In this document: in pieces, positions 12,186 to 59,290 of the stretch | Layout: the number at the start of each line of letters is the position of its first letter | Position numbering within the stretch: position 1 is the stretch's first letter | Assembly: GCA_950295325.1 (NCBI GenBank) | Contig: OX485804.1 | Span: forward strand, 36,828,001 to 36,892,000 | DNA length: 64,000 nucleotides | Reading direction: 5' to 3' | From: Polytrichum commune | Lineage: Eukaryota > Streptophyta > Polytrichopsida > Polytrichales > Polytrichaceae | The notes under the pieces: model-generated | Database searches by the model: none | What the model saw: only the letters and a program-made list of their open reading frames with translations | What the model was told of the DNA's origin: nothing | Program-made: the position numbers and the translations under genes

Positions 12186-13328
12186 AAGTATGCCCACATA
12201 ATTTATCATAAACAATGTAGCAAGTGTGGCATGCCCCTCAAAATCTATTCGTTTTTATTTGCCACCTATATGTGTGTTAGTAGGTGATTGCAGTAGCAAG
12301 GGTCTGGTTATAGTGAGGTCAGCATGAGTTAAAGACCATACATCATAACCAAAGCATGTGGTGACCAATCCCCAATCATCTAGAGCTAAATGTTTTGTTC
12401 TTTGAGCTAGGCCTCACCAATCTTACCATCTAGTGGTCAACTCATTCAAATTGGGTCCCCATTGAGTCCCATGAACATATTTTGAGGTCTTTGATGACAT
12501 CAAGAGGATGTAATGTAGCACCACTTGTGTCTAGCTGCATGCGCAAGAGCCACAACACATATCCCATCAATGAAAAACTTGGAAACAAAATTGAAAATTT
12601 CTATTACAAAAATCAATAATACATCCAAACAAATTAACATAATTGTTGCACAATATGCACATTCTATACTAGTCCATAAGCGAAGACTAGAGAGTGGACA
12701 ACTTATCACATACCTCCATAACTCGCCATAAATAACTAACAAATAAATAAATATGTATATATAACAAACAAAAGTACCCCACCCCCTTAATATTACTAGG
12801 TTCTAGAGCGTCTCCTACTAAAGACGATTACATATTGCCGGTTATTGTTAATGGTTATCAATTACTACATATAGGGCGTGGCCAAGGATGTGTTACGAAC
12901 ATACACTTCGGCCTCCTTTGGAAACCAGAGTTCTTCTTCTTCTTTGATGACTCTTCCATAGTGGATCCTAAACACGTGAACATTTTGTGTTATAATATAA
13001 TACAATATGTTTCACCTTACATGAGATTGATTGGGGGGGGGGGGGCAAGACATTTACATCGATATGTGCAATTCATGAATATATTTCCTTTAGACCTATC
13101 AAACTACCTTAGATCAAAATGAAATTACAATAATTTATAACTTTGTTCATTTATCCATATAGCATTTACAACAAATTATTATTATTATTATTATTAGTAT
13201 AGTTTACATTGTGATAGTAAGAAATCCAAATAGTGTGGAATGTCAATAAATTAGCATGGAGGCAACCTAATTGCACATTGTAGGGTACCTAGCCTTGGAC
13301 TTCAAGTACGTTAAAATGTAAGAAAGTA

Positions 13329-13546
13329 CACTTAATATTGTATTTAGTGTCACTTACTATTTGGAATTATGCAATGCTATTTTTGTTTATTAAAAATATG
13401 ATATTTTTCCAACAAATGTCAAATTGATTCTTTGGACATTATAGGACATTAACAATCTTACTAGGTAAAAAAACACATCAACAATAAATAAGATACAACA
13501 TTGTGTAACTCCAAATAGTGAGTGACACTAAATATCATATTTAGTG
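13329..13546. mobile_element. MITE family A, copy 1 (218 bp)
   Basis: Terminal inverted repeats of ~40 bp. The left end is cacttaatattgtatttagt and the right end is the complement of cactaaatatgatatttagt. It is flanked by TA on both sides. The copy at 13974..14189 is the same subfamily in opposite orientation; sharing runs through the interior (tcctataatgtcc, acatttgttgg). It has no coding capacity. A TA duplication would suit a Tc1/mariner-like element, whereas CACTA..TAGTG ends recall CACTA elements, so the superfamily is left open. Confidence 0.8.
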
Positions 13547-13973
13547 TAGTGTGTGTTGATAGGTGAGCAATGCCACTACAATGATTATCCCAATTAATAA
13601 GGTTGGCACTAAATCCCGAAGCACTCACTATTTAGCCAAATGTCAAAGTTAATGAGGGTAGAATTTTTTTACTAAGTGACTCTAAATTCAATATATATAT
13701 GCTCATTTACCATGTATTTCAAGAAAAGTGGTGTTTGCTCTACAATGTTTGTAGAGTGGAAATTTTATAAAATATGGAAACACATGCTTGTCACAACACA
13801 ACGCACCAAAAAGGAGTGCACAAAAAAAATCACATCACATTGCCAAAGAAGATGGCTACTTTATTATAGAAAACCCAAAATATACATGGGCTTCAAAAAG
13901 CCTCTTTGATGCTCCTACATTTAAGTCCACGAACGGCACGTAACTAGACTCTTATGAACTATGGACGGAACTA

Positions 13974-14189
13974 CACTTAATATTATATTTGATGTCGCTT
14001 ACTATTTGGATTTACACATTGTTGTATCTTTTTACTATTGATGTGATTTTTATCAAGTAAAGTTGTTAGTGTTCTATAATGTCCAAACAACCGATTTAAC
14101 ATTTGTTGGTAAAATATCAGATATACAGTAACTATACATAGCATTGAGTATTTTCAAATAGTCGGTGACACTAAATATCATGTTTAATG
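13974..14189. mobile_element. MITE family A, copy 2 (216 bp)
   Basis: Inverted relative of 13329..13546, only ~430 bp away. The ends are cacttaatattatatttgat and the complement of cattaaacatgatatttagt, with TA on each flank. The pair could itself form a hairpin. It is non-coding. Confidence 0.75.
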
Positions 14190-14677
14190 TAGACTATTGT
14201 GAAGCCTTAAGGGTGAACTCAACTAGGCTATTATGAAGCCGAGTGAATAAGAATAGATTAGTGGCAATCTAGTTAACTACTTGTAGCCCCTAGTGACGAT
14301 CTTGCCAAATACTTCTAACTCCTCTTATATTGGATATCTTATCTTGTCTTATCTTACTCTTATATTAGCTTATCAAGCCAACTTGTTAGCTCCAAATATA
14401 TTACCCCCCCTTCCCTCCAATCACATTGTTGGACAAGTAATTGTATCCACCTCATCGCCCCCCAGTAATGTGCCTAAACATTCATATATATTTAGACCTT
14501 AAGAATTAAGACCTATTGTAAAATCATTATGTGTGGGACTTTGCCCTCTACCAATCACATTGCTCGACAAAAATGGGACCTAGGAACAAAGACATAGTGT
14601 AAAGCAACCTAATGCTAGCCTTCCAGTTCATTAAAAATGTAAGTAAAAAAAAATTGTTGACATGTGAGAAAGTAGTT

Positions 14678-35983: not shown

Positions 35984-37322
35984 GAAGGAGTGGGAAATCA
36001 ATCGTGCACTTCAAGATGAATGTAATCTTCATGACACAAGGGTCCGTGCTTGAATGGACTTGGGAAACCAATGGTTGCGGAAGGATTTGTTTGATGGTTT
36101 TGCCGACGGAGGAGCTACATCCTTAGCTACCGAGGCCCCTAGACTTGCAAGGTCAAGCGTTGGGTTGTTAGTGCGTTGTGGCTTTGCTAGCATGCAACGG
36201 CAATGGCCATGTGCCGTTGTATGTGCATGTGAGAAGCATCCGCAAAATAAGCAAGGATGAAGCTATTAGAATAAATCCATGATAAAGGTCCTAGTTGGCC
36301 CACACTTTGTGCCAACGTGTCTTTTTTTACAACGTGTTTTTTTTTGGTTGCCTTGTGCAAAGGCCTACTAATTAATGAAACACCCGATATATCAAAAGGA
36401 ATTGCTATTAGAATAGCAACAGCTCGCACGACAACCCCAAAAAAACATTGTCTAAAAAAAGCTTTGCCAATCTCGGGAGTGTCTTGGCACCTGCTTTTCC
36501 ATCCACCACTAACACTATCGTTGCCACCTGGTTCTACATCCCACCGAACACCCATGTCCCCCGCTACATACTCCTCAAGGCCACCATAGATTCCCCATAA
36601 AACTTCAACCCTGCCCCCACAACCAATCCCATTTTTGCATGCCAAAGTAATTCCACGGTCCCCCCCTCCCCCCAAATGCCCCTAAAATAGGTCCCACTTA
36701 TTTGGACCTTACTTTCATACTTAACATCGTACCCAAGGTTGAAGATCGGTTTCTCAAACTAAGAAAAATATTTTTCTTGAGTGGGGACCAACGAGATTTG
36801 ACAAGACAGTGATGCCGCAGTAGCACCACTTCATCTTCTCATGCCTTGGACTTGGACTTGGACCTGGACCCTAGTGTAAACTACTTGGACCCAAAAATCT
36901 CCTCTAAAGTTAGACCAATAGGATCGCTTGATTTTGGAGTTTCTTTGGTCTTGGACCCTAGTGTAAACCCACCCTTAGTTTTACCACCAAGTAAGAGTGG
37001 AGTGTGAAGAATGGGATTCTAACCAAGCTAGTATCGTAATACTGTAAGTTTGAATCTTGTCAACCTCCGAGGGACTTTGCACCGCGAGTGTTTCGCAGAG
37101 AGTGTGAAGTTTCTCCAAACCCCAGCTGCCACGGCCTTCCCTTCCATAGCTCATCACAACTGCCATCGTCGCCGTCGTCGCAGGAAAGATCGGCAGCATT
37201 CCATTAAAGTATCGTGGAGCGGTGCGGAATCAGTCTTGCTGTGCGCCGGAAGCAACAGACAAGCGGACTCGAAACCAGAGCGCGGGATAATACTGAGCTG
37301 AACAAGAAAGAAAAAGGAAAGT
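35984..37322. other. Spacer and upstream region of RPN8
   Basis: 36.05-36.66 kb is GC-richer, with frames on both strands but no recognised protein; it may belong to the mobile relic before it. 36.83-36.97 kb contains a repeated 'ttggacctt/ggaccctagtgtaaac' phrase. 37.05-37.32 kb is GC-rich and is the probable RPN8 promoter and leader. Confidence 0.4.
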
Positions 37323-40300
37323 ATGGACGTCATAAGTGCGAGCGTGGGGGCGGGGTCGCAGGGAATTGAGAAGGTGGTGTTGCATCCGCTGGTGCTGCTC
37401 AGTATAGTGGACAATTACAACCGAGTTGCCAAGGATACGAGGCGGCGTGTCCTTGGAGTGCTGCTGGGCTCTACTTTCCGTGGCCGTGTCGACATCACCA
37501 ACAGCTACGCAGGTTTTGTTTTCGCCATCTGTCCATCAAACTAGTGATTAGGTTCTTTGTTGATTGCTCTGCCTCCTCCGCTCTGCGCCTTAGTTTAGTG
37601 GAGCGTTTTAGGGCTAGGGGATAGCGAGAGGCAGGGGAGGGTTTATCGTTTAGGGTAATCACTGTAGCGAGAGTGTGGAGGAGTGTGGGATGATTCCGTT
37701 CGTTTCTGCTCGAGATGGTTTTTTAAATGTTGGAAAAAGAGCTCTACTTGAGGATTTTGCAATCCCATTTGGGGACGATGACAAGGATGCCAGCATTTGG
37801 TTCCTGGATCACAATTATCACGAGGTCATGTAGATATCACTCAAAAAGCTATGGAGGTTTTCATCATCTAACCATCAATTTAGCGATTAGGTTTTAGTCG
37901 GCTCTGCAAGGGGATTGCTCTGCCCCCCTCCTATCTGCGTCTTAGTAGTTTAGTGGACCGTGTTAGGGTTAGGGGATCGCGGTAGACAGGGGAGAGGGAG
38001 GGTTTGGTTATTGTAATCACGTAGCAGGAGTGAGGAGTATGGGAATGTGCCATCAGCTGGCACTCGAGATGATGCTTTAGACGCTGAAATGAGAGCTTTA
38101 CTTGAAGATTTTGCAGTCCCATTTGACAAGGATGGCAGCATTTGGTTCCTGTATTACAACTATCACGAGGTCATCTAGATACCACCAAAACAGCTATGGA
38201 GATTTTCATCATCTGTCCATGGAATTTTGAGATTAGTTGTTGGTGGGTTCTGTAATGCGATTGCTCTGCCCCCTCCTCTATGCGCCTGAGTAGTTTGGAG
38301 GAGCGTTTTAGGGTTACGGGACGCCCAGAGGCATGGGACAGGGAGAGTTCGGGTAGGGTAAGAATGAGTAGTATGGGAAGGTGCCGTAGTCTGGCTCTCG
38401 CCTCTCGAGATGATGCTTTGAAAAAAGAGATGTACTTGAGGATTTTGCAGTCCCATTCGAGGGAGATGACAAGGATGCCAGCATATGGTTCCTGGATCAC
38501 AACTATCACGAGACTATGTAGATACCTGCAAACACCTATGCAGGTTTACATCTGTCCATCAATTTTTAGATTAGGTTCTTGGTCGGTTCTGTGTGAGGGA
38601 GAGGGAGTATTCATTAGTATTCATTTAGGGAAATCACTGTAGCAAGGGTGAGGAGTATGCGAAGGTGTTGTCCGCTGGCTCTCAAGATGATTAGGTGAAT
38701 GCTGAGAAAGAGCTGTTACTTGAGGATCTTTCTGTCACATTTGACAAGGATGCCAGCATTTTGGTTCCTGGATCAGAACTATCATGAGGCCGTTTTGATA
38801 GCCGTGGTGGTGTAGATATCACCAACAGCTATGGAGGTTTTCATCATTTGTTCATGAGTTTTTGTGATTAGGTCGTTGGTCAGTTCTGCAAGGTGATTGC
38901 TACTCCACCTTCTCTCTGTTACTTAGTTTAGTGTAGCGTTTAAGAGTTAGGGGACCCCAAGAGGCAGGGGAAGGGGTTTTTGTGTGACCGATGGAATGCG
39001 TTCAAGGTAACTACTGTAGGAAGAGTGAGGAGAATAGGAAGGTGCTGTTACTTGAGATCTTGCTTTAAATGCTGAGGAGAGCTGTGACTGTGATTTTGCA
39101 GTCCCATTTGAGGAAGATGACAAGGATGCTAGCATTTGGTTCTTGGATCACAACTATCACGAGGTCATGTACGACATGTTCAAGAGAATCAATGGTACTT
39201 TGTTTCTACCTGCATCTAAGTTCGTGAGATATTCATGTTGTGTTGAAGGGTAATAATATGTTTTTGTAGTGGATGCTTTATTGAGGCACATGACAATCAT
39301 AGAATCAAAAAGTGCCGAGGCGCTGAATCCTTGGCAATGGGCACACTGTAGTAACATGTCCTAACAGTTGCTCACACACCGTGAAGGCTATCTATACTCA
39401 CCTTGAATCGGGCTTCATCAACTAGTTAGATGTAACCTATATTTATCTGTAATGCTGGTCTTGGGAGATATGAAAAAATCACACAGAATGACTTGGGAGA
39501 TATATTTTCAGATTTCTTTTCATTATACTTATCTAGGGTCAATTTATAGAGCTCAAAGCCTGTTTGTGGATGTGTTGGAGACAGATTTTATTGCATGTCT
39601 TAAATAGGTGTCAATAGTACTCTTCAAGAACATTGCATGCCTTACAAGGCTGGTATTTCTCCTTGAAACCCCTACTAGGTGTTTGTCTTTACTTAGAGTT
39701 CAGGTCAACTTCTTGAGTATGATTTCAGGTTTTAATAGGAACTAAATGTTCCTGCCTTGTTTTCACTGAATAGCAAAGGAGCACGTCATAGGTTGGTACA
39801 GCACTGGGCCTAAACTCCGAGAGAATGATCTCGACATCCATGAACTATTTCGGGAGTGAGTACATTACCTTCTGAACCATAATATATTTGATCACTTCGT
39901 GTCTTTGAGACCAGGACATGATAAATGCATGTATTTATTTTGAACGTTGAAGGTTTGCATTTTAAGAGTTCCAAAAGAGGTACATTGATGATCTGGAACT
40001 GAAGGTTAGCATGCTGTGCAGTTACTGTCCAAATCCAGTTCTGGTGATCATCGATGTTGAACCAAAAGAGCTTGGTATCCCAACTAAGGCTTATTATGCA
40101 GTTGAGGAAGTGAAAGAGGTGAGCTATTCTGATACAAGGAGCTGTTCTTGGGTACACCAAAGAACCGCTCATTTTCTTTTGCTCGTGTTTCAAGTGGAGC
40201 CCCAGCAGAGAAGAATAATTTGCAGGTTTATTTGGAGCAGTTACAACATTTCTGCAGTTCACTGTTTGGGTTGTCTTTTTGATGGCGTGCAAATGAGCTG

Positions 40301-41981
40301 ATTGTGGGATCATATACAGGATGCTACACAAAAAAGCCAGAAAGCCTTCGTTCATGTTGCATCTGAGATTGGGGCTTATGAGGCTGAGGAAATTGGTATG
40401 TTGTATTCCCCTTTTCAAGGTGTTCATGACTTCTGCTATGCATCAATGAAATTGGTATAATATATTTGGTCAACGACAGAAAACTTAAAACTTTGAGATG
40501 CAATGACAGCTTGTTGTGAAACAGTCGCCATGCAGTCTGAGCTGTTTCGCATTTTCACTGTATAAATTAATAACGCAAATATTGTTTCTGGCATTGGAGA
40601 AGATTATTTCTGTACGATTATGTAGAGATTATTTCTATGCAAAAGCACTTGTATGTAGATTGAAACAAGGAAGTGGGCATTTGTATTGATAGATGTTGCT
40701 CTATGTATATACAGGTGTAGAGCATCTTTTAAGGGATGTGAAGGATGCTACAATCAGTACACTTGCCACTGAGGTATTACATTGTACTTGACAGACCTGC
40801 TGGTGTTCCCATCCTGCTGTAAACCTTTGATTCTTGTGATTGTGGAAAATACTACAATGGTCTTAGTGTTAAGGTTATTGCCATCGTTTTCTGCAGGTGG
40901 GAGGAAAGTTGGTGGCATTGAAGGGGTTGGAGGCAAGGCTGAAAGAAATACATGCATATCTAGAGCTTGTAGTTGATGGCCGGCTACCTCTTAACCATGA
41001 AATTCTATACCATCTTCAGGTAAGCTTCTTATCAACTTCTTGGGACTCTGAAATGTTTCCACTTGGGCAATTCTTTTATATGATATGGACAAAGAATCTC
41101 TTTGACTATGTGAGAATATGTAGTGTCTTTGAGAATGCTGTTGCTAAAGATTTGCTCTTGTATTCTAAGCAGGATGTATTCAATCTGCTACCCAACCTCA
41201 ATGTGCATGAGCTTGTCAAATCCTTTGCTGGTGAGTTTTAGACTTTGTCAGCACATCATATAGTTGTCGACAAACTTCCTTCTTTTCATGCTTTGTGTTG
41301 TATCTCATCATGTCCGCTATGGCTGGTTCACATTAAATTGGCTGTTGTGTTGAGCTCATTGTTCCTTATAATTTTCAAAAAAACTGCAAGAGCAATGCTT
41401 ACTCAATCAGACACAGAGATTGCAGAACTGCAATTTCTCCTGTAATTTGCAGAATGGCAATAGTTTGTAATGTAATCTGATGCTAGCAACGTTGCTATGT
41501 ATTGTCGTTTTGTAAACTGATGTACTCTTATTTGAAGTTTCCAAGGTCCAAACCTGATCCTGTTGACATCTTGGGTGGTGCCTTCCCTGTGCAGTGAAAA
41601 CAAATGACATGATGTTGGTGATTTATCTCTCGTCTCTTATTCGAAGCGTCATTGCACTACACAACCTTATCAACAATAAGGTAATGATTTCTGCATGTTT
41701 TAATACTAGGATATAGCTCCTACCTTCACCAAGTGAGCTAGTTACTTCATATCCTTCATGAATATGTGGATCAATTGTAGGAGGGCTTTGTACTGCTTTC
41801 ATCTTTATTGCTTGTGGCAGTCTTTGAAGATTCTCTATTCCCAGACGATTTCCCCTTTCAGAATAATATGATAGGCATATTATAATGATATGATGGTTAT
41901 GGTGGGGTGCAGATTTTAAATAAGGAACATGAGAGAATTTCAGATGCAGCATCAACTAGTGTTTCAGCTATTGCAGTCTAG
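37323..41981 (+). CDS. RPN8: 26S proteasome regulatory subunit RPN8 (PSMD7), MPN domain
   Basis: Ten exons (37323..37512, 39102..39194, 39774..39855, 40022..40118, 40320..40395, 40715..40773, 40897..41019, 41173..41230, 41595..41680, 41913..41981) give 310 residues; every join is GT..AG and in phase. The length matches plant RPN8 (~308). The MPN domain spans ~14-150 ([33 protein letters not shown]). At 101-106 the motif is GWYSTG, not the JAMM HTH, so this subunit has no peptidase activity; it forms the lid heterodimer with catalytic RPN11. The C-terminal half ([30 protein letters not shown]) is the helical part that joins the lid bundle. Intron 1 is 1589 bp and is a tandem array with dead copies of exon 2. 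The correct exon 2 is the last, as only it has both splice sites and an open frame. Confidence 0.97.
37762..37832 (+). pseudogene. Dead RPN8 exon 2 copy 1
   Basis: Encodes [20 protein letters not shown]-type sequence then reads straight into TAG at the unit junction. The acceptor is lost (ttttgcaa instead of ttttgcag) and there is no donor. Confidence 0.9.
38116..38177 (+). pseudogene. Dead RPN8 exon 2 copy 2
   Basis: The acceptor ttttgcag is intact, but 9 nt of the acidic EED codons are deleted, His/Asp positions are changed (FLYYNYHEV), and the frame ends at TAG at the junction. No donor. Confidence 0.9.
38451..38521 (+). pseudogene. Dead RPN8 exon 2 copy 3
   Basis: The best preserved copy: intact acceptor gattttgcag, frame [20 protein letters not shown], then TAG at the junction and no donor. 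If the acceptor were used, the transcript would gain a premature stop. Confidence 0.9.
38731..38795 (+). pseudogene. Dead RPN8 exon 2 copy 4
   Basis: The most decayed copy. The acceptor is lost (ctttctgtc), the acidic codons are deleted as in copy 2, and an extra T in 'gcattttggtt' shifts the frame. Confidence 0.85.
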
Positions 41982-43325
41982 GTAGTGCATAAGAGGCCGT
42001 TTCCACTTGATACACACACCAATTCAAAGGACTTTGTGGGTTGTTTACGCTTCCCTGTCAGATGAATATAATGGTATTCTTCATTTTCTTCATTACCATA
42101 TAGCATGATATGTATACATATTTATACACTTCCAAGTGGCACATGGAACTCCTGCATCTGATCACTCTAGTCCAATCTATCTTGTATTTGTTTGCCCATG
42201 CCCTGAGCCCTGTTTACACTACATAGTGCTCGAGTGGAGATCATGAGCTGAGAGCTCGAAGATTAGTGAGGTGCCTCTTACGCGTGCTTCTTCACTCGTA
42301 TCCACTTTACACACAAGCTCTCAACTTGAGAGCTCAAAGTTCTTACCAGGCTTACAACGCTTAGATGGATCCTATGTAGAATTAGCTAACTTACTTCCAT
42401 GGGCTTAGAAATTGTGGAGAGCTCGAGCTCTTGTTTTGTGAGCCCCAGGCCATGAGTGCTCCATTGATTTCCCATGAATGCGTTTTTGTTTCAGTATCAT
42501 TCCTTCACACTTGCTCAAACTATTTGAGATTGGTCAAGCTCTCACTAGTTTGAGCTCTGGATGAAAGCTTGTGAAACTCCTAGTATCAAACTCTCAAAAT
42601 TGTAAGTTTGAGCTCTGAACTCGAGCTGCAACCACATCCGAAGGGGGGGGGGTTGGCCCAAGCTCCCTTGTGTTCTTGATCATCAAATACTGGAAGGGCT
42701 TTAAAAGTGCTACTCTTATACTAGGATAATGATAGGGGATTGTTAAATCAACCATGTAGTTTGTTAAAACGACCACAAAGACATGTCATGTGGTCACTTG
42801 ACCTGTCAAATTTTGATTTTTCATCACATGAAGAGGAGCAAGGTGTTTATCTTTGTTAAAACAATAAACGTGGCCAACTTGGATGACATATAACCTGGTT
42901 TGTGGTCAATGATAATGACCTTCCCCTTATTACTAATTTTGTGGCATCGTACAACAGTAAACATGGACCTGTTTTCATACTGCAAATTGGTTTGGAAGAT
43001 AAGCAACTTCGTCAGGGGTGGTTCCCTAATTGTGGTATTGTCACAATATCAAAAGTATTGGTGAGCATAAACATCACTTTGATTGAATTCAATAAGTGCA
43101 GGTTTAGGAATCCATCCATGACATTATAGTTCACAACTAACAATACTTGTGTATAATGATACATGTCTTGAGCTGTTGAAAAAGATGTAAAGTATTCTGC
43201 AAACTTCCTCAGCTATTCTACAATTTTTCTACTATGTCAATCGAACAGAAGAAACTGTTCTGGTTTGACATTGCATCCTGCTGATACAAAGCTTCAAAAT
43301 TCACTATTGAGAATATGATATAACT
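41982..43325. other. Convergent intergenic region between RPN8 and the SUMO-like gene
   Basis: Should hold both 3' untranslated regions. 42230-42640 is unusually rich in GAGCTC/AGCTCGAG words (for example tggagagctcgagctcttg, tttgagctctg), a low-complexity, probably repeat-derived patch. A run of ten G's lies near 42644. No gene is supported. Confidence 0.5.
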
Positions 43326-50182: not shown

Positions 50183-50571
50183 AATAGCGGGGCATCGTTA
50201 TGATAAACTCTCTTATGTAATCTTTTGAAGCGCTTTACAAATGAGACTCCATTGATAAATTTATGGTGTAAAAGAAAGTATGCATGATATGATATGAATA
50301 TTTGGATTCATGATCAAAGTAAACAAAAGTTAATGTTTAAGAGAGTGTCGCACATGTCACTTCCAACATAAAGCTTCTAGTACCAAAGTGTGGAACTTGC
50401 TTATCACCTAGGGGAAGTACGTATTACTATTGATGACCATATGCAGGATTCACTTTGGAGGTTTCTCCTAAACTCCGTGTATTTTAGGAACCCCGTCCAC
50501 ATTCGAAACTTGGGAAATGTGAATGAATATAAGTTCAACTACTGCTCTGTCAGAACACATATATCTCTACC

Positions 50572-51108
50572 AAGGGTGGAAAAAACCCAACTCTTTCCAG
50601 CCGATGCATTGGGTTTTTGGTTTTAATGCAAAACACCTTATTTCTGCGAATAAAACAATGATCTTATGTTAGCTACTGCCATATGTATTCCAGCCAGCAT
50701 TTATCATCAAGGGTGGAAAAAACCAATTTTTTTCTAGCCGATGCATTGGGTTTTTGGTTTTAATGCAAAACACATGATTTCTGCGAATAAAACAATGATC
50801 TTATTTTAGCTACCGCCATATGTATTCCAGCCAACATTGTATCATCAAGGGTGGAAGAAACCCAACTTTTCCCAACCGATGCATTGGGTTTTTGGTTTCA
50901 ATGCAAAAAACCCGATTTCTACGAATAAAACAATGGTTTTATTTTAGCTGCCGCCATATGTATTCCAGCCAACAGTTATCATCAAGGGTGGGAAAAACCC
51001 AACCTTTTTCCGGCCGATGCATTGGGTTTCTGGTTTCAATGCAAAAATCCGATTTCTACGAATATAATCATGGTTTCATTCTAGTTGCCGCCATATGTAT
51101 TCGCCCTT
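50572..51108 (+). repeat. Tandem repeat, four ~137-bp units
   Basis: Units begin with 'aagggtgg' at 50572, 50709, 50847 and 50984. Each contains 'ccgatgcattgggttttt', 'tttctgcgaataaaac' or 'tttctacgaata' and ends 'cgccatatgtattcca'. A degraded fifth unit (ccggatgattgggtttttt) follows near 51165. Neighbouring units stay in one frame over the last two copies, but the period is not a multiple of three overall, so coding is unlikely. Confidence 0.93.
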
Positions 51109-57576: not shown

Positions 57577-57706
57577 AACTAAAAGGCAAGAGTAAACTAT
57601 GAGTAAACAAAAAGATAATCTATTTCTATCCTTTAGTAAAGGTAACTAAGAGTAACCTATGAGTAGACACAAGGGTAATCTATTTCTATCCTTTAGTAAA
57701 GGTAAC
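57577..57706 (+). repeat. ~60-bp minisatellite, left part
   Basis: Two units of the form 'actaagagtaacctatgagt' .. 'taatctatttctatccttta' .. 'gtaaaggta'. The array continues at 59203-59290 with two more units, so it has been split by the LTR between. Confidence 0.88.
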
Positions 57707-59202
57707 TGTGAGCCCAAATTGATGCCCACATGTGTTGTTAACACTTGTAAAACATTACAAGTGGTATTTTGTTGATTTATGATTATTCACAAAAATATAA
57801 AAAGAGTGAAGCTTGAAGAAAGCTAAATTTGAAGCATTAGGCTTGTGTGGAGTGGATTTAAGTAGTATGAGGACATACCTTGGTAAAGTGTGAAAGCCAA
57901 TGTTAGTTAAATATTTGAATTAGGATCTTTGTTGATCATTTAAGGGAGGAAGGCTTAGAAGATAAGATAAAAGCCTACAAAGTAGGAGGAGATTTCGAAG
58001 GCTTATCGTGAGCCTTGAGGGTGCTCACCCCCTCAAACTCACTATATAATCCCTTATTCTTCCCTCACTCATCTTCTTTTTCCTTCGTGCTCCTTGGCAC
58101 CCCACGTGTTATAAGTGTGGGTGTATGGAAGCAAGATAGGAGCACATGTGTGTGCATGATTTTGAAGTTAGGAGCCAAGGCTAGTTGGCCTTGAAGAGGG
58201 CTTGACCTTTTGTTAGAATTAGTTTGGGTGTGAATAATTTTAAGATAATTAATGGCTTCAAGTTGTAGTACTTGAGTTCATATTTCTTGGGTATATGTGT
58301 TTGCTAAGTGTCATCATAACTATTCCACTCGGGCTAGGAGGAAATCGAAGGTTGGAGTACTTTTGGTGACACGTTGCCGGAACACGAGTTGGTAAATGAG
58401 AGGGTCCTTTGAGTAGTCTAGGTTGTAAGGGGCATAACTTCCGAGCAGAAGAAGATACTTCGTTGAAATTTAGAGGGTTAGTAAACAACTTGTTTATATG
58501 AACATGGTCAAAATCTGAGGATGTTTGGAGTACTGGAGCAGCAGTTATGACATTATGAACTTTGCCTACATTTTTGAGCTGAAATGGGCATAACTCCTGG
58601 ACAGAGGCTTGGAAACGCATGAAATTTTGAGGGATGCCTTGTTCTTAAGTTTCCTAGTTGTGATACAAATTTCAAGTCACTCCGAGTAGATGAGAAGGAG
58701 ATATATTATTCTGAAGTGTTTTCAAGACTTGCAGACTAAAAAGGCCATAACGTTTTGGCAGAAAATGAAAATAGTTTGAAATTTCAGGGGGTCATAAACG
58801 ATTAGTTTTTGTGATTGCTCCCAAAATTTGAAGTTCTTTGGAGCCCGTGGGAGGAAGCTATGACATTCTGAAATCTGGGTGGACTGACACACTAAAATGG
58901 TCATAACTGTCGGACAGAAAATGAAATAGGCTCACAAATTGGTGAGATATTTTTTGCTTTGTCTCCCTAGTTACAGATAAAATTTCAGGATATTCTGAGA
59001 AGTAATGGGAAAGTTACACTATTCTGAAATTTGTTCTGGATGTAGCCTTGGGGGTTAAATCATAAGTCATTAACGTTGTGTATATTCCAAAGGCATATTG
59101 GAATGATACATTGAGTTACTAAAGAAGGAGTTTGTTAAGTGTCATCAATACTATTCCACTCGGGCTAGGACGAAATCGAAGGGTGGAGTACTTTTGGTGA
59201 CA
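57707..59202 (+). mobile_element. Solo LTR-like element (1496 bp) with 5-bp target duplication
   Basis: Begins TGTGAGCCC and ends GGTGACA (TGT..ACA ends), flanked by GTAAC on both sides (57702-57706 and 59203-59207). These are the hallmarks of an LTR retrotransposon integration. No gag, protease, reverse transcriptase or integrase sequence is present, so it is a solo LTR or a terminal-repeat-only element. Inside, 58433-59055 contains four diverged ~156-bp units each starting near 'ggcataac', and the last ~67 bp (59136-59202) also occur at 58305-58371. Confidence 0.82.
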
Positions 59203-59290
59203 GTAACTAAGAGTAACTATGAGTAAACATAAAGGTAATCTATTTCTATTATTTAGCATAGGTAACTAAGAGTAACCTATGGGTACTAAA
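59203..59290 (+). repeat. ~60-bp minisatellite, right part
   Basis: Continuation of 57577-57706 after the LTR: one full unit and one partial (aactaagagtaacctatggg). Confidence 0.85.

What the first reader, a model, noticed from the sequence alone, without database searches (positions are those of the whole stretch)
37488..39168. RPN8 intron 1 is a five-unit tandem array with four dead exon 2 copies
A ~343-bp block spanning exon 1 tail, intron and exon 2 has been duplicated four times inside an essential single-copy-type gene. Breakpoints fall at a short similarity between exon 1 and exon 2. Each dead copy runs into TAG at the junction, and copies 2 and 3 keep a good acceptor. This is an unusually clear case of tandem exon duplication followed by decay, with splicing having to skip four decoys. 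Use of a decoy acceptor would give a premature stop, a possible dose-control route.
Basis: partly seen in the sequence, partly recalled or inferred. Interest (0 to 1): 0.85.

Follow-up and report, generated by a model that had tools for sequence, protein, structure and literature searches.

The report
Dead exon-copy array in RPN8 intron
The first intron of a plant proteasome gene holds four broken, tandemly copied versions of the next exon; this is a real and tidy example of a known kind of gene remodelling, with no sign yet that the copies do anything.

Summary
Intron 1 (37513-39101) of an intact ten-exon RPN8 gene is a five-unit tandem array (spacing 345, 343, 276, 375 bp) with four dead copies of the first three quarters of exon 2, each fused to a copy of the exon 1 tail. 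Units differ by 23-37% in intron, so an assembly stutter is unlikely. Corrections: the gene is not single-copy; an intact paralog on contig C6 lacks the array, and unit divergence lies below paralog dS, so the array is probably younger than the paralog split. Three of four copies run into the junction TAG; the fourth is frameshifted and meets TGA. Only one cassette (38451-38543, 93 nt) keeps both splice sites; its use would put a stop at codon 87. I infer that the founding hybrid exon was 111 nt, phase 1-1 and open, and that a later 19-bp deletion brought TAG into frame. Unexplained: dead exon copies differ from each other roughly a third to two thirds as much as the surrounding intron, though their changes look unconstrained at protein level. 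Best reading: remnants of intragenic tandem duplication, skipped in splicing. Dose control by the surviving cassette is possible but untested.

The parts
37323..37512 (+). RPN8a exon 1 (live), from ATG, ends in phase 1 at CAG|GTTTTG
   Evidence: spliced reading gives an intact 310-aa protein over ten exons
37478..37831 (+). unit 1: live exon 1 tail, intron stretch, dead exon 2 copy 1
37832..38176 (+). unit 2: exon 1 tail copy, intron stretch, dead exon 2 copy 2
38177..38519 (+). unit 3: exon 1 tail copy, intron stretch, dead exon 2 copy 3
38520..38801 (+). unit 4: exon 1 tail copy, shortened intron stretch, dead exon 2 copy 4 (frameshifted)
38802..39194 (+). unit 5: longest exon 1 tail copy, intron stretch, live exon 2
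   Evidence: (family D13)
37763..37856 (+). hybrid cassette 1/2 (exon 2 copy + exon 1 tail copy), 94 nt; acceptor lost (CAA), donor kept; TAG at junction
38117..38201 (+). hybrid cassette 2/3, 85 nt (9-nt deletion); acceptor kept, donor lost (AT); TAG at junction
38451..38543 (+). hybrid cassette 3/4, 93 nt; both splice sites kept; inclusion would stop translation at codon 87 (potential poison exon)
38735..38836 (+). hybrid cassette 4/5, 102 nt, long junction with about 12 more bases of exon 1 than the others; acceptor lost (CTG), donor kept; TGA by frameshift
39102..39194 (+). live exon 2, 93 nt, phase 1-1
39774..41981 (+). RPN8a exons 3-10 with introns
   Evidence: Pfam JAB and MitMem_reg over cut-off; named top solved relatives are 26S proteasome Rpn8/PSMD7

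Best explanation
After the two RPN8 genes of this plant had split, a stretch of RPN8a running from the exon 1 tail through intron 1 into exon 2 was duplicated in tandem, creating a hybrid exon (exon 2 head + exon 1 tail) inside the intron (inferred from anatomy). Unequal exchange between units raised the number to five (inferred). The hybrid exons cannot replace exon 2, because they lack its last 17-25 bases and its own donor, so the mature mRNA must join exon 1 to the last, complete exon 2 and skip them (inferred from the reading frame). The copies then decayed: stops, a frameshift, a 9-nt deletion, and loss of one splice dinucleotide in three of four (shown). The founder was probably 111 nt, phase 1-1 and open; a later 19-bp deletion at the junction, together with a C>A change, brought TAG into frame before or while the short-junction units multiplied (inferred). 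One cassette is still spliceable in principle and would lead to NMD if included (prediction).
For: Five-unit periodicity far beyond chance. Intact 10-exon RPN8a reading frame using the last exon 2. Paralog with one exon 2 and no direct-repeat array in its 935-bp intron 1. Pooled unit divergence in intron p = 0.29 (pairs 0.23-0.37), about 0.37 by Jukes-Cantor (my arithmetic), below paralog dS of 0.73-0.95. Private changes in exon 2 copies 12 N: 5 S (exon 1 tail copies 7 N: 4 S), versus 1 N: 7 S between the live exons of the two genes over the same exon 2 codons. Intron 1 as query matches only itself and the paralog's exon 2 in the assembly (2 matches; that search skips very common words). Unit 5's start matches the exon 1 end for 40 nt at 85% (D13).
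Against: Plain neutral decay since duplication does not predict that dead exon 2 copies differ from each other less than the intron between them: fitted rates of exon part to intron part of about 0.29-0.40 in six runs, per-event ratio 0.51-0.65 under four scoring schemes, alignment-free 0.13-0.14 versus 0.26-0.29. Ectopic gene conversion, RNA-level constraint or a lower mutation rate must be added. In single pairs the contrast is often not significant (P 0.009-0.7; P 0.07-1 for substitutions alone under the gap-tolerant scoring), and pooled substitutions alone do not differ under that scoring (0.117 v 0.122). No transcript data were available, so skipping itself is inferred.
Confidence: 0.85

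Rival explanations
1. Retained poison-exon switch: the complete cassette 38451-38543 is spliced in under some conditions, sends RPN8a mRNA to NMD and tunes its dose; RNA-level selection slows change in the exon copies.
For: Both sites intact; acceptor 7.7 (at or above 13 of 18 left-out scores of real RPN8 sites) and donor 4.5 (at or above 4 of 18); stop at codon 87 with nine exon junctions downstream; exon copies slower-evolving than intron.
Against: Three of four cassettes are broken at a splice site; one intact out of four seems unremarkable under random decay (my estimate, not computed). The small matrix also scores unrelated intron sites as high or higher (AG at 38294, 7.9; GT at 38647, 8.4), so it does not single the cassette out. 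Paralog B has no such cassette. No RNA evidence. Four paper searches listed two papers in all and none by title about such a switch at RPN8/PSMD7 or plant proteasome genes; the one holding PSMD7 and poison exon (PMC8306420) was seen in the listing only.
Confidence: 0.08
2. The hybrid exon was once a live in-frame coding exon (a 37-residue tandem insertion in the MPN domain) and died later.
For: Exon 2 to GACAT joined to exon 1 from CCGTGG gives 111 nt, open and phase 1-1, for both genes' sequences. The two changes found in all four copies, TTG>CTG and GAC>GAT, are synonymous.
Against: A random join is in frame one time in three. Of the five changes shared by two or more copies, three are nonsynonymous. 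Later private changes look neutral (12 N: 5 S in exon 2 copies). The insertion would sit within the MPN fold (inferred). The model rests on about 12 exon 1 bases kept at junction 4/5.
Confidence: 0.07
3. Assembly artefact: one unit repeated by error.
For: Tandem repeats are a usual place for assembly error (general knowledge).
Against: Units differ by 23-37% in intron with private indels; stuttering gives near-identical copies. The contig is 70 Mb of a 408-Mb, 64-contig assembly.
Confidence: 0.02
4. Mutually exclusive exon cluster, with the copies acting as alternative exon 2.
For: Tandem copies of one exon lie between constant exons.
Against: No copy has the last 17 nt of exon 2 or its donor; all four hold stops; cassette lengths 94, 85, 93 and 102 differ.
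Confidence: 0.01

Closest known systems
Tandem exon duplication within a gene (Letunic et al. 2002: seen only as an entry in the reference list of PMC12343006, content recalled) and degenerate intronic exon copies, which the Exonize tool is said to detect (PMC12343006, passages seen)
   Same: A copy of an exon lies in the intron next to its source, in tandem, and is degenerate.
   Different: Four dead copies of a partial exon 2 fused to an exon 1 tail, rather than one full exon copy; kept in a five-unit array.
[quoted passage not shown] seen only as an entry in the reference list of PMC7605655, content recalled)
   Same: A segment spanning an exon-intron-exon boundary is duplicated inside a gene and absorbed into intron sequence.
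   Different: Here an existing intron grew; no new intron was made.
Intragenic exon duplication in dmrt1 of Solea senegalensis (PMC7605655, passages seen)
   Same: Exons duplicated inside a conserved gene.
   Different: In the sole the duplicated exons 2 and 3 form part of the reported seven-exon gene; here the copies are dead and only one is spliceable in principle.
Poison exons coupled to NMD (PMC6547761, search listing with start of abstract only)
   Same: A cassette with a stop codon between intact splice sites.
   Different: No evidence of inclusion or of conservation in another species; that abstract concerns RNA-binding proteins that regulate themselves, and RPN8 is not known to me as one (recalled).

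Membership tests
RPN8/PSMD7 (26S proteasome lid subunit) | MPN (JAB) domain plus C-terminal MitMem_reg domain; best sequence matches to Rpn8 | tested here: met
   Pfam JAB 123.8 bits and MitMem_reg 135.7 bits, both over cut-off; full-length Rpn8/PSMD7 chains score 295-394 bits, eIF3F up to 109 and CSN6 up to 98.6; the top chain 8amz_U (546 bits) is named only 'MPN domain-containing protein'
Tandem exon duplication with degenerate copies | Tandem copies of a coding exon inside an intron of the same gene | tested here: met
Tandem exon duplication with degenerate copies | Copies carry disabling lesions | tested here: met
   4 of 4 with stops, 1 of 4 with a frameshift, 3 of 4 lacking a splice dinucleotide
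Poison exon (NMD switch) | Intact splice sites around an in-frame stop | tested here: met
   only cassette 38451-38543, 1 of 4
Poison exon (NMD switch) | Inclusion in RNA and decay by NMD | not testable with these tools
   no transcript data
Poison exon (NMD switch) | Conservation between orthologs or paralogs | tested here: not met
   absent from the paralog's intron 1; no ortholog of another species was examined
Mutually exclusive exons | Each copy open and of compatible phase and length | tested here: not met
   all four copies hold stops

The most novel reading that the evidence does not exclude
The array is not inert: its hybrid exons are, or were until recently, under RNA-level selection, and the one complete cassette (38451-38543) works as a stop-containing exon that tunes RPN8a output against its paralog, so a dose switch was built from a decaying exon duplication.
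Probability: 0.08. Interest if true: 0.65.

Novelty: new member of a known kind. Interest (0 to 1): 0.36.

Why it matters
It is a readable fossil series of intragenic duplication: a probable founder junction, a derived junction, successive lesions and one cassette still spliceable in principle, all in one intron of a conserved gene with an array-free paralog as control. It gives a natural test of how a spliceosome ignores sites that look as good as the real one, and of whether exon copies in an intron are homogenised by conversion or held by RNA-level selection.

Tried and rejected
Transposon origin: intron 1 as query finds only itself and the paralog's exon 2 in the assembly (that search skips very common words, so this is not proof). 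Structured RNA: no Rfam family over threshold in 37000-42500. Mutually exclusive exons: rejected, every copy has a stop. Exon 1/exon 2 micro-similarity as the founding breakpoint: the longest shared word is 7 nt, elsewhere, and no more than chance (1006 of 2000 shuffles); the short TGT(A)CGACAT resemblance at the short junctions stays possible for the secondary deletion. Alignment artefact behind the slow exon copies: tested with four scoring schemes and k-mers and with three MAFFT modes with and without cassette 3/4. The contrast holds in these, except for substitutions alone under the most gap-tolerant scoring (exon 0.117, intron 0.122; pair by pair). Species: not identified. rbcL was located on contig C8, and its locus was not read; a paper search on a guess about mosses gave nothing that I used. 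Paper searches for earlier reports listed no title that describes this array. I opened two of the papers listed, and only by passages; most subscription papers are not held.

Full report
What is there. The window lies at C2:36828001-36892000 of a 408-Mb, 64-contig assembly. The gene on the + strand from 37323 to 41981 has ten exons with GT-AG introns and an intact 310-residue reading frame. It carries Pfam JAB and MitMem_reg domains, and its best named solved relatives are 26S proteasome Rpn8/PSMD7 chains (the top hit, 8amz_U, is named only 'MPN domain-containing protein' there, and I recall that entry as a plant proteasome). That the organism is a plant rests on this recall and on an rbcL gene in the assembly. 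Intron 1 is 1589 bp, against 123-579 bp for the other eight introns of the gene.

The array. Intron 1 with its flanking exon ends splits into five units: 37478-37831, 37832-38176, 38177-38519, 38520-38801 and 38802-39194. The exon 2 core recurs at a spacing of 345, 343, 276 and 375 bp. Self-BLAST finds 8 off-diagonal direct hits at E <= 1e-3, against 0 in 50 single-base shuffles. Units differ at 23-37% of aligned intron positions, pooled 29%. That is far too much for an assembly stutter.

The cassettes. Where two units meet, a dead exon 2 copy is fused to a copy of the exon 1 tail, so each meeting point has the layout of an exon: acceptor, exon 2 head, exon 1 tail, donor. Cassette 1/2 (37763-37856) lost its acceptor; 2/3 (38117-38201) lost its donor; 3/4 (38451-38543) has both; 4/5 (38735-38836) lost its acceptor. 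On a matrix from the 18 introns of both RPN8 genes, the acceptors of copies 2 and 3 score 7.9 and 7.7. The live acceptor scores 4.4 when left out of the matrix and 7.9 when included. The matrix is small and also gives unrelated sites in the intron scores as high or higher (AG at 38294, 7.9; GT at 38647, 8.4). Copies 1-3 read in frame into TAG at the junction; copy 4 has an extra T and reaches TGA. Joining exon 1 to cassette 3/4 puts a stop at codon 87, upstream of nine exon junctions, so NMD would be expected if it were ever included (a prediction from the general rule).

The paralog. The same protein query finds a second RPN8 gene on contig C6. It is intact, 311 residues, with dN 0.025-0.026 and dS 0.73-0.95 to the first. 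Its intron 1 is 935 bp, holds an inverted repeat of about 320 bases, and shows no direct-repeat array. Unit divergence in the array (about 0.37 substitutions per site by my Jukes-Cantor arithmetic from the pooled 29%) lies below that dS, which fits an origin after the paralog split. The gene is therefore not single-copy.

How it arose. Junctions 1/2, 2/3 and 3/4 are short and alike; junction 4/5 is longer and keeps about 12 further bases of exon 1, 10 of them identical (unit 5's start matches the exon 1 end over 40 nt at 85%, D13). All four copies share TTG>CTG and GAC>GAT relative to both live genes, and three share GCA>GGA, which points to one founding copy. Joining exon 2 up to GACAT with exon 1 from CCGTGG gives a 111-nt, phase 1-1, fully open hybrid exon from either gene. 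I infer that this long junction is the older state. A 19-bp deletion relative to it (alignment), with a C>A change that is synonymous in the founder frame, brought TAG into frame and spread with the units. A second, separate duplication for junction 4/5 is not excluded. The founder could have been an in-frame insertion rather than a poison exon at birth, but a random join is in frame one time in three, and of five changes shared by two or more copies three are nonsynonymous.

Decay and an oddity. Private changes in the four exon 2 copies are 12 nonsynonymous to 5 synonymous, while the live exons of the two genes differ by 1 to 7 over the same codons (Fisher P 0.011). So the copies show no protein-level constraint since they separated. 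Yet the copies differ from each other less than the intron around them. In a four-cassette alignment 13 of 60 fully occupied exon 2 columns vary, against 106 of 164 intron columns. Fitted relative rates are 0.34-0.47 for the exon part and 1.16-1.21 for the intron, with P from 1.3e-4 to 2.3e-8 in six runs, three of them without cassette 3/4. Counting substitutions plus gap events gives 0.138-0.141 for exon and 0.211-0.275 for intron under four scoring schemes, and the k-mer estimate is 0.13-0.14 against 0.26-0.29. Against this, single pairs are often not significant, and with very cheap gaps pooled substitutions alone do not differ (0.117 v 0.122). Misaligned intron stretches, seen by eye in cassette 3/4, inflate the intron figures in the four-cassette runs. 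The exon copies thus seem to have been homogenised or held back at the nucleic acid level. Ectopic conversion among exon copies is my first guess. RNA-level constraint and uneven mutation are alternatives, and nothing here decides between them.

Verdict. A well-confirmed array of decayed hybrid exons from intragenic tandem duplication, most likely skipped in splicing. It belongs to a known kind (tandem exon duplication with degenerate copies), notable for the number of units and the readable order of events. The dose-control reading rests on one complete cassette and no RNA.

Noticed in passing
L007 (paralog RPN8b), reverse-complement positions 1232-1549: Intron 1 of the paralog holds a palindromic inverted repeat of about 320 bases (70.6% self-complementary match), which looks like a miniature inverted-repeat transposon.
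   Followed up: partly
window 37763-37831, 38117-38176, 38451-38519, 38735-38795: Dead exon 2 copies diverge from each other at roughly a third to two thirds of the rate of the intron around them, without protein-level constraint; unexplained.
   Followed up: partly
window 50571-51102: Tandem array of a 137-bp unit, 3.9 copies, 89% matches.
   Followed up: no
window 13316-14192: Two stretches of about 220-235 bases match each other both inverted (80%) and direct (68%), suggesting an inverted-repeat mobile element.
   Followed up: no
window 57588-57707 and 59203-59285: A 60-bp unit in two tandem copies (91% matches), with further matching copies about 1.6 kb away.
   Followed up: no
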